From a virus: a stretch of 42,369 bases of DNA. The position numbers and the translations under genes were made by a program. Shown piece by piece: positions 1 to 36,009 of the stretch (within the stretch, counting starts at the first letter, position 1; each line of letters begins with the position of its first letter). The stretch spans positions 1 to 42,369 of the IMG/VR virus record IMGVR_UViG_3300044648_000374; one strand, given 5' to 3'. The notes under the pieces are model-generated. The model ran no database searches. It saw only the letters and a program-made list of their open reading frames with translations, and was not told the DNA's origin.

Positions 1-1
1 G

Positions 2-643
2 TCGCTCTACGGCCGTCCCTGCTACGCGGGTCTCGACCTATCCAGCACTCAGGATCTCACTGGACTCGTGCTTGCCGTCGTGGCCCCCGACGGCAGTTTG
101 GATATCGTCCCGTACTTTTGGACGCCGCATGACCGGATGACCCAGAAAGAGACCACCGACAAGGTCCCGTACCCGCTCTGGGTCAAGCAGGGCCACATGG
201 AAGCAACGCCGGGTACCGCCATCCGGAAGGACGCCATCGTCCGCCGGATTGCCGAGATCATCGGCCGCTTCGAGGTCAAGGAGATTGCCTATGACCGCCA
301 CCGGATCGAGGATCTGATCCCGTTTTTCGACGACGAGGGCCTGGATCGCGACCTTTTGGTGCCTTTTGGGCAGGGTTTCGTCGGTTTCGGCCCCGCGGTC
401 GATGCCCTTGAGACCGCGGTACTGAACAGGGAAATCAGGCATCCCGGCAACCCCTGCCTGACCTGGAATATCGCCAACAGCGTCGTGGTGCAGGACGCCG
501 CCGGTAATCGGAAGTTGGATAAAAGCAAAAGTACCGGACGCATCGACGGTGCGGTCGCGATGGCGATGGCCGTCCGGCAGGCCATGGTCGGTCGCGAGGC
601 CGCCCCGTCGCCGTATGAATCAAGGGGTCTGTTAGTCTTCTGA
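2..643 (+). CDS. Terminase large subunit, C-terminal nuclease part (5' truncated by window)
   Basis: This is the headful/site-specific DNA packaging motor subunit that cuts concatemeric phage DNA and pumps it into the prohead. Only the C-terminal part is in the window; the frame is open from base 2 to the stop at 641-643 (213 residues). The segment GLDLSSTQDLTGLV near the start holds the first acidic residue of the RNase H-like nuclease fold of the Terminase_1 family. YDRHRIEDL (near residue 99) and a distal STGRIDGAVAMAMA supply later acidic positions, as in HK97-like large terminases. The ATPase half (Walker A/B) lies upstream of the window. The gene is followed by the portal gene after 57 bases that carry a TAAATA element, the standard terminase-portal order. 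The family call is firm; the exact packaging mode cannot be read from this fragment. Confidence 0.95.
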   Translation, partial: SLYGRPCYAGLDLSSTQDLTGLVLAVVAPDGSLDIVPYFWTPHDRMTQKETTDKVPYPLWVKQGHMEATPGTAIRKDAIVRRIAEIIGRFEVKEIAYDRHRIEDLIPFFDDEGLDRDLLVPFGQGFVGFGPAVDALETAVLNREIRHPGNPCLTWNIANSVVVQDAAGNRKLDKSKSTGRIDGAVAMAMAVRQAMVGREAAPSPYESRGLLVF

Positions 644-2667: not shown

Positions 2668-3906
2668 ATGTCGAACATCGCTAATCTGCGGGAAACCCGC
2701 TCGAACCTGATCAACGAGGCCCGTGCCGAACTGGCGAAGATCACCACGGACATGTCCGAGGGTGATGTTGCTGAGTATGAGGGCCGCTTCGACGCCGCGA
2801 TGGCGGAAGCCGACAAGATCGAAGGCCGGATCGCTCGCGAAGAGCGTCTGCTGGCAGCCGAGGCCGCCCTGGAAGCCCGCGTCGAGCAGCGTGCCGAGAA
2901 GGCCCGCACCGGCCGCGGCGATGCCGAGAAGGCCGTCAACCTGGAAGACGGTGCGTTCCGTTCCTGGCTCCGCGGCGGCATGGCCGCTCTGTCGGACGAG
3001 CAGCGGAACTACGTTCTGACCACCCAGGCTGAAGCCCGTGCCCAGAGCATCGGCACCCCGGCCGAGGGCGGCTTCCTGGTTCCCGAAGGTTTCCGGGCCG
3101 TTCTGGAGCAGAGCCTGAAGGCATTCGGCGGCACCCGTCTGGTTTCGACCATCCTGCCGACCGCTTCGGGCAACAACCTCCCGATGCCGACCGTCGATGA
3201 GACGAATTCAATCGGAGCGATCATTTCCGAGAACAGTCAGGTGTCTGAGGGCGATGTTGCTTTCGGTCAGGTTGTGCTTGGTGCCCACATGTACTCCTCG
3301 AAGATGATCCGCGTCTCCCAGCAGTTGCTGCAAGACTCGGCCTTCGATCTGCCGGCGTACCTCGCGGACGCTCTGGGGACTCGCCTCGCCCGGATCACCA
3401 ACCAGCACTTCACCACCGGCACGGGTACCAACCAGCCTAAGGGTATCGTGACTGCTGCAACGCAGGGCGTTGTCGGTGCCGCTGGCACGGCCACTTCGGT
3501 GACCTATGACAACCTGATTGACCTGATCCACAGCGTTGATCCCGCGTACCGTGCAGGTGCGACGTTCATGTTCTCGGACAACGTGCTGAAGGCCCTCCGC
3601 AAGCTGAAGGACGGTGAAGGCCGCCCGCTGTGGCAGCCCGCCCTGACCGCTGGTGAGCCGGCGACCATCCTGGGCCGCCCCTACGTGATCAACAACGACA
3701 TGCCGGTCATGGCTGCCAACGCGAAGAGCATCGTGTTCGGCGACCTGAAGAAGCACATCATCCGCGACGTGCTGGGCGTGCAGGTTGTGACGCTCAACGA
3801 GCGTTTCGCGGACTACGGGCAGAAGGCATTCCTGGCGTTCAGCCGCCACGACGCCAACTGCGTCAACCCGTCGGCGATCAAGTACTTCGCGAACGGTGCC
3901 AGCTAA
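2668..3906 (+). CDS. Major capsid protein (HK97 fold)
   Basis: This forms the icosahedral shell. The first ~100 residues are highly charged and helical (coiled-coil delta domain acting as internal scaffold). The mature HK97-fold protein then begins near residues 125-140, around IGTPAEGGFLVPE, the usual start of the N-arm. Cleavage by the upstream protease should fall between about residues 100 and 125. Further family landmarks are the SSKMIRVSQQLLQDSAFDL spine-helix region (about residues 211-229), TGTGTNQPKGIV, and ILGRPYVINNDMP near the C-terminus. I chose ATG 2668, directly preceded in frame by TTG, because GAGGAAG at 2655-2661 gives a proper Shine-Dalgarno spacing. A strong terminator follows at 3942. 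Total length is 412 residues, usual for the family. Confidence 0.97.
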   Translation: MSNIANLRETRSNLINEARAELAKITTDMSEGDVAEYEGRFDAAMAEADKIEGRIAREERLLAAEAALEARVEQRAEKARTGRGDAEKAVNLEDGAFRSWLRGGMAALSDEQRNYVLTTQAEARAQSIGTPAEGGFLVPEGFRAVLEQSLKAFGGTRLVSTILPTASGNNLPMPTVDETNSIGAIISENSQVSEGDVAFGQVVLGAHMYSSKMIRVSQQLLQDSAFDLPAYLADALGTRLARITNQHFTTGTGTNQPKGIVTAATQGVVGAAGTATSVTYDNLIDLIHSVDPAYRAGATFMFSDNVLKALRKLKDGEGRPLWQPALTAGEPATILGRPYVINNDMPVMAANAKSIVFGDLKKHIIRDVLGVQVVTLNERFADYGQKAFLAFSRHDANCVNPSAIKYFANGAS

Positions 3907-24998: not shown

Positions 24999-25283
24999 AT
25001 GGCCGATGAACCCGACGATCCGAAAGTCATCGCGTTTCCGGGAGCCAACCGGGCACCGGAACCAAAGAAGCGGAAGCCGCGTGGCCCCACCGTGAGCCAG
25101 CCGGCGGTGCCGCACGCCCGGTTGGAGCTTGGCCCGATCACCTATACCTGTCCGCAGTGCCGGACGGTCTCAACGCTGACCGGCCAGAACCTGATCTTCC
25201 GGGTCATAGACGCCTATTGCTCGGGATGCGGGACGCTTTTTAGGCTAACTAACGCGGCATTTTCGACAAAGCCGACCCGTTAG
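24999..25283 (+). CDS. Zinc-ribbon protein, unknown role
   Basis: A 94-residue protein. Residues 1-40 are charged and Pro-rich with a basic patch (PKKRKPRGP). Residues about 47-83 form a four-Cys zinc ribbon: YTCPQCRTVSTL, then DAYCSGCGTLFRL, two CxxC pairs about 24 residues apart. Zinc ribbons of this size bind nucleic acid or protein; a role as a small transcription or packaging factor is possible but not shown. The start lies 5 bases after TAAATA without a ribosome-binding site. The gene converges on the minus-strand gene at 25280 and the two overlap by four bases. Confidence 0.65.
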   Translation: MADEPDDPKVIAFPGANRAPEPKKRKPRGPTVSQPAVPHARLELGPITYTCPQCRTVSTLTGQNLIFRVIDAYCSGCGTLFRLTNAAFSTKPTR

Positions 25284-25642
25284 GATCTCGGGGGCAGCTT
25301 GCTTCCCGGCGGCGGTTCGACATCGTAGTCGTAGTAGTAATCGGTTTCAGAGAGAAAGACGCCATCTTGACCCGGTACCGGGTAGTGCAGGACGCAGAAC
25401 CGATCCGTTTTGAACAATTTGTTCAATTTTTTCGCCAAAGAATACGCATGGCCCCCGTTGATGAACGCGGTACGAGCATATTTCGGGCCAGGGTAATCCA
25501 AAAGAGTGTTGCGTTTCCGCAGCCCGACCGGTTGATCCCCGTAGGCGACGACGAAGACGCCCTGGGCGATCAGGACTTCGGTCGCCTTGTAGTCGCGACC
25601 GGTGTGCGACACCAAGACGGTGGGTTTCGGGCGTCCGGTCAT
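25280..25642 (-). CDS. Unknown protein, lone minus-strand gene
   Basis: A 120-residue protein read leftward from ATG at 25642, preceded by a good GGAGG ribosome-binding site (GCGGAGGATCGC). The N-terminus (TVLVSHTGRDYKATEVLIAQ) starts like an alpha/beta domain, followed by GVFVVAYGDQPVGLRKRN and a C-terminal acidic Tyr-rich stretch (ETDYYYDYDVEPPPG). Third codon positions are G/C-rich, supporting this strand over the longer opposite reading frame at 25367-25813. I do not recognise a family. It interrupts a rightward block and ends tail to tail with the zinc-ribbon gene. It may be an accessory gene inserted next to the late region. Confidence 0.65.
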   Translation of the reverse strand: MTGRPKPTVLVSHTGRDYKATEVLIAQGVFVVAYGDQPVGLRKRNTLLDYPGPKYARTAFINGGHAYSLAKKLNKLFKTDRFCVLHYPVPGQDGVFLSETDYYYDYDVEPPPGSKLPPRS

Positions 25643-34095: not shown

Positions 34096-34765
34096 CGCCC
34101 TGGTGGAGTGGTGGAAGACGCCGCCTCCGCCCATGAAGCGGCTGGTCAAGAAGCTGTCCCGGTATCCGCTGGATCTGGTCGAGCGGATGCTGGAGAGGAT
34201 CAGCGACGACGCCAAGGCCGAGCGGTTCCTGGCGGCCCGCATCTTCCCGCTGCCGGGCGATTTCATCAAGTACATCCGGGACGAGCTACAGGAGCGGCGG
34301 GACCACCTGTCGGAACTGCGGAAGATCAAGGCGTGGCTTGAGTTCCAAGCCCGGCTGGCCGAGCAGGAGGCGGCGCGACGCGCCGCCCAGCAGCCCAAAG
34401 CCCTGCCGGGATCGGGGTCGTCGGTTTCCCTCCTGACCACAGTCCCGCGGACGCTGCCGGCGGTGCGGCTGGCCGATGTCAGCGGCCCGCCCAACATGGC
34501 GAGGCCGCGGATCGTCATCCTCCGCATCCCCGTGGCGGATCTACCGGCCGCCATCCGGGAAGACATCGAGTCGGTCGTCGGAGAGGTTGCCCAGACGGCC
34601 ATGCTGGTAGCCGGCGTCACTCGTCTGGCCGCCCGTGCCGGCATGGTCCATGGCTTGGTAGCCGGCATGATGGGTCTGGCCGAAGGCGAAGCCCGCATCC
34701 GGGTCGTCGATGAGGACGCCGAAGCGGCCTTGCGGGAACTTTTGGTGGACTCAACTGTACCTTGA
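33932..34765 (+). CDS. Unknown protein overlapping the DnaT-like gene
   Basis: A 277-residue protein from ATG 33932 (an in-frame ATG at 33842 would give 307 residues). Either way it overlaps the preceding gene by 164-254 bases in another frame. Third codon positions in the overlap are strongly G/C-rich in this frame, which supports it. Residues about 50-160 are helical (WLMKELDALVEWWKTPPPPM, then YPLDLVERMLERISDDAKAE, ELQERRDHLSELRKIKAWLE). A Ser/Pro linker and an Ala/Val-rich C-terminal domain with an acidic end follow. No family recognised. Its place among replication genes suggests a partner of helicase loading. The stop overlaps a TTG of the next frame. Confidence 0.65.
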   Translation: MRSYASYRRNVADLATARPPTAAEISSLPAELAAAEKALTPLSVEECGWLMKELDALVEWWKTPPPPMKRLVKKLSRYPLDLVERMLERISDDAKAERFLAARIFPLPGDFIKYIRDELQERRDHLSELRKIKAWLEFQARLAEQEAARRAAQQPKALPGSGSSVSLLTTVPRTLPAVRLADVSGPPNMARPRIVILRIPVADLPAAIREDIESVVGEVAQTAMLVAGVTRLAARAGMVHGLVAGMMGLAEGEARIRVVDEDAEAALRELLVDSTVP

Positions 34766-34785
34766 CGAACTTGAAGGAGAAACCA

Positions 34786-34992
34786 GTGCCCTGTCCCAGC
34801 CCCTACGGCCTGAATGAACCGCGGCGGCCCCGCCAGTCCGACTCGATCATCAAGTTGGCAGGCCAGACCCAAGACTGCCTTGAGCACCTGGAAGATCTGG
34901 TCGCGACCCTGAGGCAGACGCCGGATGGTAACGTCGTGCTGGACGCCATCCGGGAAACCATGCTGAGGTTGGCTGAGGAGAGCCGCGGGTGA
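34786..34992 (+). CDS. Small unknown protein
   Basis: A 68-residue protein. I chose GTG 34786 because AAGGAG (34774-34779) lies 6 bases upstream; an in-frame TTG at 34762 overlapping the previous stop is the alternative. It reads as a basic Pro-rich N-terminus (YGLNEPRRPRQ) followed by a helical segment, IIKLAGQTQDCLEHLEDLVA, then VVLDAIRETMLRLAEES. No family recognised. The hairpin repeat array begins 12 bases after its stop. Confidence 0.55.
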   Translation: MPCPSPYGLNEPRRPRQSDSIIKLAGQTQDCLEHLEDLVATLRQTPDGNVVLDAIRETMLRLAEESRG

Positions 34993-35003
34993 TAGACTGG
35001 AAT

Positions 35004-35417
35004 CGGCCACCCTGGTTCGCCGGGGTGGCTACGATGATCAGTACGGGATTCGGACCATGGGGTAACCAGCGGCCACCCAAGTGGCTACGATGATTGCAAA
35101 TCATACCGGGACCTCGATGAATTACCCGGCCACCGGTTCGCCGGTGGCTACGATGACATGAAAATGAACTTGAGAGCCGATACAGGAACACCGGCCACCG
35201 GTTCGCCGATGGCTACGACGAACCGTAACGGACGACGTAAGGGCCTTCGGGAAACCGGCCACCCAGGTGGATGGCTACGACAATGCCTCGCTCAGGATTC
35301 CGTGGGGAACGAAAGCCACCGGCCACCCCAGGGTATCGGGATGGCTACGACGAAGCTATCGAGTGCAACGCCCTGCTCACAACGGCCACCCCGCGCAGCG
35401 CGGGGTGGCTACCCGCT
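35004..35417 (+). repeat. Array of seven hairpin repeats with unique spacers (CRISPR-like)
   Basis: Seven units start with CGGCCAC(C) at 35004, 35070, 35127, 35192, 35256, 35320 and 35383, and end with GGC followed by an 8-base tag: TACGATGA (35030, 35086, 35149), TACGACGA (35214, 35346), TACGACAA (35276) and the degenerate TACCCGCT (35410). Units are 24-35 bases and spacers 32, 33, 35, 34, 36 and 29 bases. Each unit folds as GCCACC...GGTGGC. Stems differ but mostly stay paired: 10 bp with TTCG loop in unit 1, 8 bp with TTCG loop in unit 3, 11 bp in unit 7; units 4 and 6 have one mismatch. The last unit has lost its tag. The array lies in a 480-bp gap with no convincing gene. Confidence 0.9.
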
Positions 35418-35448
35418 AACCATCTGTTAACCCAAAGCCTCTATTAAA

Positions 35449-35467
35449 CCCTCCACCTGATGGAGGG
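35449..35467 (+). promoter_or_regulatory. Hairpin sequestering the ribosome-binding site of the 35473 gene
   Basis: CCCTCCA (35449-35455) pairs with TGGAGGG (35461-35467) around a 5-base loop. The right arm contains the only Shine-Dalgarno sequence (GGAGGG) of the gene starting at 35473, so translation may depend on melting of this stem. Confidence 0.6.
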
Positions 35468-35472
35468 ACTTG

Positions 35473-36009
35473 ATGACTGACGACGACGACACCGCTGATC
35501 TCCTGAGCGAAATCATGGCCCGGAACGATCACAAGATCCAGGCCATGATGGCGGCTTCCGACGAACGCACGATCCCACTCCAGTGGGAGAGCCGCGAACG
35601 GGGTTGGGCAAACCAGATCCTGGTGGCACGCCGGGGCCGCGAGGTCTTCACCGTGTTCCAGGACAGCTACACTGAGTACTGGAACTGGTACCGCGGAGCC
35701 GAGGTCTACGACCCGTTCGACGAAGAGTCGTCCGTGGTCTACTGCGAGGAAGCGACCGCCGCCGGGGCGATCCGGGACTGCCAGCATGAGCTTTGGAGCG
35801 AGGGCCGGTTGCCGTTCTTCCTCCGGCAGGTCCGCCGCACCGTCGTCGATAACGCCGGAGGTGACTGGGCTCCCTACGAGGCTGCCCTCTGTCTGTGTCG
35901 GAGGGCCAGCACCGCGATGGCTCTGCTGGGTGACATTTCGTCAACGGCCCGTAAGATTATCGCCGTCCGGGACAGAGAAATAAAACGCCTGATGGATAAA
36001 GACGACTGA
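35473..36009 (+). CDS. Unknown acidic protein of the replication region
   Basis: A 178-residue protein, ATG 35473. The N-terminus is very acidic (MTDDDDTADLLSEIMARN). The middle is aromatic (SYTEYWNWYRGAEVYDPFDE), then EEATAAGAIRDCQHELWSEG, and the C-terminal ~70 residues are helical with three Cys (EAALCLCRRASTAMALLGDI) and a basic end (RDREIKRLMDKDD). No family recognised. It stands between the hairpin array and the terminator at 36109, and its ribosome-binding site is inside a hairpin. Confidence 0.65.
   Translation: MTDDDDTADLLSEIMARNDHKIQAMMAASDERTIPLQWESRERGWANQILVARRGREVFTVFQDSYTEYWNWYRGAEVYDPFDEESSVVYCEEATAAGAIRDCQHELWSEGRLPFFLRQVRRTVVDNAGGDWAPYEAALCLCRRASTAMALLGDISSTARKIIAVRDREIKRLMDKDD

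What the first reader, a model, noticed from the sequence alone, without database searches (positions are those of the whole stretch)
35004..35417. CRISPR-like array of seven structured repeats with unique spacers, no cas genes
Each unit is a GCCACC...GGTGGC hairpin followed immediately by an 8-base tag close to TACGATGA, then a unique spacer of 29-36 bases. That is the layout of a class 1 CRISPR repeat (hairpin cut at its base, 8-nt handle, spacer of about 32 nt), and the last unit is degenerate at its 3' end, as terminal repeats often are. Against a normal CRISPR: stem lengths and sequences differ between units and change on both strands so as to keep pairing, suggesting selection on RNA or cruciform shape rather than copying. 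Unit starts are mostly 63-66 bp apart, about six helical turns, so a protein-bound DNA array (origin, partition site) is also possible. It lies between replisome genes.
Basis: partly seen in the sequence, partly recalled or inferred. Interest (0 to 1): 0.88.

Follow-up and report, generated by a model that had tools for sequence, protein, structure and literature searches.

The report
Phage array of GTAG-tagged hairpin repeats
A bacterial virus from a metagenome carries a row of seven short tagged hairpins, not a CRISPR array; the same tag-plus-hairpin element recurs in long rows in unrelated viruses, was not found in the bacterial genomes sampled, and most resembles the GTAG-tagged REP palindromes known from bacterial chromosomes.

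Summary
The array is real: seven units at 35004-35417 fill an intergenic gap, and the tag cluster never arises in shuffles. It is not CRISPR: hairpins vary, no protospacers, no Cas models hit. The structured strand is the minus strand, opposite to the one first read: across 26 units (this phage plus contig L027), the stem has 19 G-U and 3 A-C cells on minus, the reverse on plus. Read that way each unit is 5'-TTNTC-GTAG-CC(stem-loop)GG..C(C/T)G-3'; the interval between units is not conserved. The same element was found in four further phage lineages: L027 (19 units), a Rak2-like jumbo phage (~40), another large myophage, and Mu-like myophages. TCGTAGCC is invariant across the five aligned lineages while stems drift with pairing kept. 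Two diverged Mu-like phages keep the array at one locus. Closest known kind: GTAG-tagged REP palindromes (Di Nocera 2013), but no RAYT transposase, no host REP family in about 1,000 genomes of four phyla, and head-to-tail order. TIGR stem-loop arrays were tested and not supported (no Nop protein, no internal boxes). Function is inferred only: phage-borne REP-like elements, single-stranded hairpins read by a protein.

The parts
35379..35412 (-). unit 1 in GTAG-strand order: tag degenerate (GCGGGTAG), 11-bp hairpin 35385-35409
35316..35356 (-). unit 2: CTTCGTCGTAG tag, hairpin 35322-35345
   Evidence: model R1, 35.9 bits
35252..35286 (-). unit 3: CATTGTCGTAG tag, hairpin 35258-35275
   Evidence: 35.5 bits
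35188..35224 (-). unit 4: GTTCGTCGTAG tag, hairpin 35194-35213 (G-U on minus strand, A-C on plus)
   Evidence: 33.9 bits
35123..35159 (-). unit 5: TGTCATCGTAG tag, hairpin 35129-35148
   Evidence: 32.5 bits
35066..35096 (-). unit 6: AATCATCGTAG tag, short hairpin 35072-35085
   Evidence: 18.6 bits
35000..35040 (-). unit 7: GATCATCGTAG tag, 10-bp hairpin 35006-35029
   Evidence: 29.8 bits
35420..35480 (-). short non-coding lead-in on the GTAG strand: hairpin CCCTCCA..TGGAGGG then TTTAAT; no sigma-70-type promoter or terminator match
34762..34992 (+). 76-aa ORF, no family match; stops about 10 bp before the array
35473..36009 (+). 178-aa ORF, no family match, good ribosome-binding site; on the other side of the array

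Best explanation
The array is a head-to-tail cluster of seven REP-like elements carried by a tailed phage. Each element is a short conserved single-stranded tag (TTNTCGTAG) followed by a palindrome, on the minus strand. Shown: the tag is conserved, the palindrome keeps pairing on the GTAG strand while its sequence drifts, the intervals are not conserved, the same element recurs in unrelated phages, and two diverged Mu-like phages keep the array at the same locus. Inferred: the working form is a single strand (ssDNA exposed during replication, or a transcript of the GTAG strand) that folds into hairpins presented next to the tag, and a host- or phage-encoded protein binds tag plus hairpin. For ssDNA the precedent is a RAYT-type HUH nuclease, which recognises GTAG next to a hairpin in REPs. 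Arrays grow by segmental duplication and are kept by selection on tag plus stem.
For: GTAG-strand asymmetry: 19 G-U vs 3 A-C stem cells on minus, the reverse on plus. TCGTAGCC invariant in 30 units of five phage lineages, three stem pairs with two-sided changes, covariation score above all 500 shuffles and all slides. Conserved block is bounded (-5 to hairpin +1..4) with no conserved interior in the intervals. The GTAG strand of the L027 array folds better than shuffles, z -7.1 versus -4.2 for the other strand. Arrays in unrelated phages; conserved position in two Mu-like phages with flanking proteins 42-58% identical. Segmental duplication in L027. GTAG tag, 6-9 bp stems with complementary changes, frequent G-T pairs and clusters reiterated with flanking DNA are described for GTAG-REPs in PMC3733652; GTAG is needed by TnpA-REP (PMC8266576).
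Against: No Y1/RAYT transposase in six of the array-bearing records. No high-copy family in 294+392 Planctomycetota, 299 Proteobacteria, 145 Verrucomicrobiota or 189 Myxococcota genomes, though the host is unknown, Acidobacteriota and others could not be sampled, and the large genome searches used strict filters. Head-to-tail order is rare for REPs. The tag is longer than GTAG. One phage (L027) carries a ProQ/FinO RNA-binding protein, which would suit an RNA role. Whether ssDNA or RNA is the active form is not shown.
Confidence: 0.5

Rival explanations
1. A phage-specific structured non-coding RNA: the GTAG strand is transcribed as a long RNA whose repeated UUNUCGUAG-hairpin modules bind many copies of an RNA-binding protein (sponge or decoy, as CsrB does for CsrA).
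For: G-U tolerance and fold z-scores on one strand; in L027, both Mu-like phages, G007 and the first array of G001 the GTAG strand runs on from the upstream gene; ProQ/FinO gene 3.3 kb from the L027 array.
Against: In this window the GTAG strand is antisense to both neighbours and no promoter was recognised; the second array of G001 has units on both strands; no ProQ in the window; G-T pairs are equally tolerated in ssDNA.
Confidence: 0.25
2. A TIGR stem-loop array (Faure et al. 2025): guide RNAs with two short spacers between box C/D motifs, palindromes in place of edge repeats, used by a Nop-domain Tas protein.
For: TIGR stem-loop arrays are described as phage-encoded tandem arrays with 'variable but consistently palindromic' sequences (PMC12045711); this array looks like that at low resolution.
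Against: No Nop domain (PF01798) in six frames of seven array-bearing records at E<=1; no conserved internal box C'/D' in the intervals; flanking block is TTNTCGTAGCC rather than box C/D. Divergent TasA could escape Pfam, and most carriers are fragments.
Confidence: 0.07
3. A DNA site array for replication initiation, partition or packaging: iterons bound by a phage protein.
For: Lies between replication genes; regular spacing near 64 bp in the window.
Against: Spacing is irregular in relatives and arrays there lie beside a DUF4262 gene, an Hsp20-like gene, MVP-like and tail-region genes; GC skew turns at ~24 kb; palindromic drift with pairing kept is not expected of dsDNA binding sites.
Confidence: 0.1
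4. A CRISPR array, mini-array or anti-CRISPR RNA decoy.
Against: Repeats are not copies; no protospacers; no Cas hits among ten proteins; no Rfam CRISPR match; intervals diverge after duplication; the 8-nt flank lies 5' of the hairpin on the structured strand.
Confidence: 0.03

Closest known systems
GTAG-tagged REP elements (Repetitive Extragenic Palindromes; Di Nocera et al. 2013, PMC3733652) and their RAYT/TnpA-REP transposases (PMC8266576)
   Same: GTAG at one end of a 6-11 bp palindrome, on the strand with G-T pairs; stems vary with complementary changes; extragenic; clustered with reiterated flanking DNA.
   Different: Carried by phages; strictly head-to-tail in the window and L027; conserved tag extends to TTNTCGTAGCC; no RAYT gene seen; no high-copy host family found in the sampled phyla.
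TIGR stem-loop arrays with Tas (Nop-domain) proteins (Faure et al. 2025, PMC12045711)
   Same: Phage-borne tandem array of variable but consistently palindromic hairpins with unique intervals.
   Different: No Nop protein found, no internal box C'/D' motifs, different conserved flank.
CRISPR arrays and phage solitary repeat units
   Same: Hairpin units with unique intervals of about 30 nt.
   Different: Unit sequences drift; no protospacers; no Cas; duplication-and-divergence rather than acquisition.
Rfam structured RNA families
   Same: Repeated RNA-like hairpins in intergenic space.
   Different: No match at gathering threshold; the only sub-threshold matches are chance-level.

Membership tests
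GTAG-tagged REP | GTAG tetranucleotide at one foot of a palindromic stem-loop | tested here: met
   GTAG present in all 7 window units and 19 L027 units, stem of 5-11 bp
GTAG-tagged REP | extragenic location | tested here: met
   array fills the gap between two ORFs
GTAG-tagged REP | high copy number in a bacterial chromosome | tested here: inconclusive
GTAG-tagged REP | RAYT (Y1/HUH) transposase acting on it | tested here: inconclusive
   none in six array-bearing phage records; a host-encoded one cannot be excluded, and REPs are non-autonomous
GTAG-tagged REP | cleavage by TnpA-REP at CT next to the element | not testable with these tools
   biochemical
TIGR stem-loop array | Nop-domain Tas protein nearby | tested here: not met
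   PF01798 six-frame search of seven records, E<=1
[quoted passage not shown]
   no conserved interior motif
CRISPR array | near-identical direct repeats | tested here: not met
CRISPR array | protospacers or Cas proteins | tested here: not met
   (ten proteins on the replication side)
Known Rfam RNA | covariance-model score above gathering threshold | tested here: not met

The most novel reading that the evidence does not exclude
A previously undescribed phage element: the invariant TTNTCGTAGCC-hairpin module, built into arrays of 3 to about 40 units in siphophages, Mu-like myophages and jumbo phages, is a phage-selected RNA or ssDNA decoy for a shared host factor (for example a host RNA chaperone, a RAYT/HUH nuclease or a defence sensor) and is not derived from host REPs.
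Probability: 0.33. Interest if true: 0.78.

Novelty: new variant of a known kind. Interest (0 to 1): 0.52.

Why it matters
REPs are known as chromosomal elements; none of the papers found here described arrays of them in phage genomes. A tag-plus-palindrome module shared by unrelated phages and kept at one locus through divergence implies selection, hence a common protein that reads it. Finding that protein would say whether phages exploit, bait or tolerate a host single-strand nuclease or RNA-binding factor. It is also a caution: such arrays mimic CRISPR and TIGR stem-loop arrays.

Tried and rejected
CRISPR/decoy crRNA (no protospacers, repeats not copies). Rfam (none). Coding repeat (spacing not in frame). 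TIGR stem-loop array (no Nop, no inner boxes). Origin by GC skew (turn at 24 kb). Host REP family: pattern or model searches in Planctomycetota, Proteobacteria, Verrucomicrobiota and Myxococcota gave only chance or coding hits. Genome-contig scan for two tandem tags: 16 hits, none with this hairpin layout, mostly repetitive coding sequence. Viral scans 15 and 91 and most single hits of 108 lie in open reading frames or resemble chance. Close relatives by polymerase and primase: none. Structure predictions of the two neighbouring proteins were too poor to use (pLDDT 46 and 41), so no fold search was made. Near-identical contig pairs (G001/G002, L134/L135) differ by only one change each, so they carry no information on selection.

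Full report
OBSERVATION. The window is a virus record of 42,369 bp: a siphophage with terminase, portal, HK97-type capsid protein, tape measure and J-like tail protein on the left and SNF2-type helicase, DUF5906 primase-helicase, family A polymerase and Gp2.5-like SSB on the right. Seven hairpin units lie between a 76-aa and a 178-aa ORF, both unmatched. Six TCGTAGCCA copies fall within 500 bp, against at most one in 200 shuffles.

WHICH STRAND. Every unit can be read on either strand, but wobble pairs decide. In 182 stem cells of 26 units (7 here, 19 in L027) there are 159 Watson-Crick cells; of the rest 19 are G-U and 3 A-C on the minus strand and the reverse on the plus strand. Energies agree for most units, and the L027 array folds with z -7.1 on this strand and -4.2 on the other; over the whole window array, however, z is -4.9 for plus and -3.9 for minus, so this rests on the pair counts. 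On the minus strand each unit reads TTNTC-GTAG-CC..hairpin..GG..C. Because most G-U cells come from one pair (stem pair 5), the inference leans on that position; G-U, C-G and U-A exchange there.

ANATOMY. Aligned at the GTAG and at the 3' arm, conservation runs from about -5 to the end of the hairpin plus 1-4 nt and then falls to background through the interval, in the window, in L027 and in G001. No internal motif was found. Intervals of 28-35 nt in the window are unrelated to each other.

RELATIVES. Pattern scans of IMG/VR found the element in L027 (19 units; ProQ/FinO, DUF4262, a CCA-adding-enzyme-like reading at the contig end, the last from my own reading of the translation), in G001/G002 (one phage, about 40 units in two blocks, baseplate wedge protein 40% identical to Agrobacterium and Sinorhizobium jumbo phages, late sigma factor), in G007 (large myophage with IF3 and ClpX) and in Mu-like myophages G008 (L134/L135) and L082. 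TCGTAGCC is invariant over 30 units from the five lineages aligned (window, L027, G001, G008, G007); three stem pairs change on both sides and the covariation score exceeds all 500 shuffles. Those 30 units were picked by eye, and the searches that found them required the tag, which favours agreement in the tag. A model from them finds all seven window units and, among 60 control loci, only L082 as a new array. L082 and G008 hold the array behind homologous genes (42-58% identity) with different stems. In L027, units 4-11, 2-15, 5-12 and 18-19 have related intervals (66-86% identity, scores above all 2,000 shuffled pairs), so arrays grow by duplication with flanking DNA.

NOT IN SAMPLED BACTERIA. 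Two patterns and the model gave no high-copy family in 294+392 Planctomycetota (overlapping samples), 299 Proteobacteria, 145 Verrucomicrobiota and 189 Myxococcota genomes; the few hits were single and look like coding or chance contexts. A scan of 84,980 species for two tandem tags found no such array. The large model searches scored only a limited number of candidates per genome, and the host phylum is unknown, so host absence is not proven.

WHAT IT IS. GTAG-tagged REPs have a GTAG foot, 6-9 bp stems, complementary stem changes, frequent G-T pairs and clusters reiterated in tandem with flanking DNA (PMC3733652); their nuclease needs GTAG beside the hairpin (PMC8266576). The array meets the sequence-level features. 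It differs in phage location, head-to-tail order, a longer tag, and no detected RAYT. I therefore call it REP-like and do not file it as a proven REP family. TIGR stem-loop arrays (PMC12045711) are the most exciting look-alike, but a Nop protein and inner boxes were sought and not found.

MECHANISM. Shown: conserved tag, pairing-preserving drift on one strand, unconserved intervals, recurrence across phages, conserved position. Inferred: a single strand folds, tag and hairpin are read by a protein, copies are kept by selection. Not shown: RNA or ssDNA, the partner, the benefit. The mixed orientation to neighbouring genes (antisense here, co-directional in most relatives, both in G001) slightly favours ssDNA.

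Noticed in passing
window 25280-25642 (-) and L148 18726-19085 (-): A 120-aa protein of unknown family in the window is 45% identical over 98 aa to the gene directly downstream of the array in the unrelated jumbo-type phage G007; in the window it lies 10 kb from the array.
   Followed up: partly
L027 7586-8254 (-): ProQ/FinO-domain protein encoded 3.3 kb from the 19-unit array of this phage contig.
   Followed up: partly
L111 2000-4522 (-): Protein with a Major Vault Protein shoulder domain in a Rak2-like jumbo phage, beside the hairpin arrays; nearby an ADP-ribosyltransferase polyvalent-protein domain.
   Followed up: no
L134 5641-5700; L135 around 3240-3300 (-); L082 9440-9500 (-): A conserved non-coding motif near TGTCAAAGARCGG follows the arrays in Mu-like phages and recurs after an isolated unit.
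   Followed up: no
window 35440-35473: Perfect 7-bp hairpin CCCTCCA/TGGAGGG overlapping the ribosome-binding site of the 178-aa ORF and leading into the array on the minus strand; G007 also has a strong hairpin just before its array.
   Followed up: no
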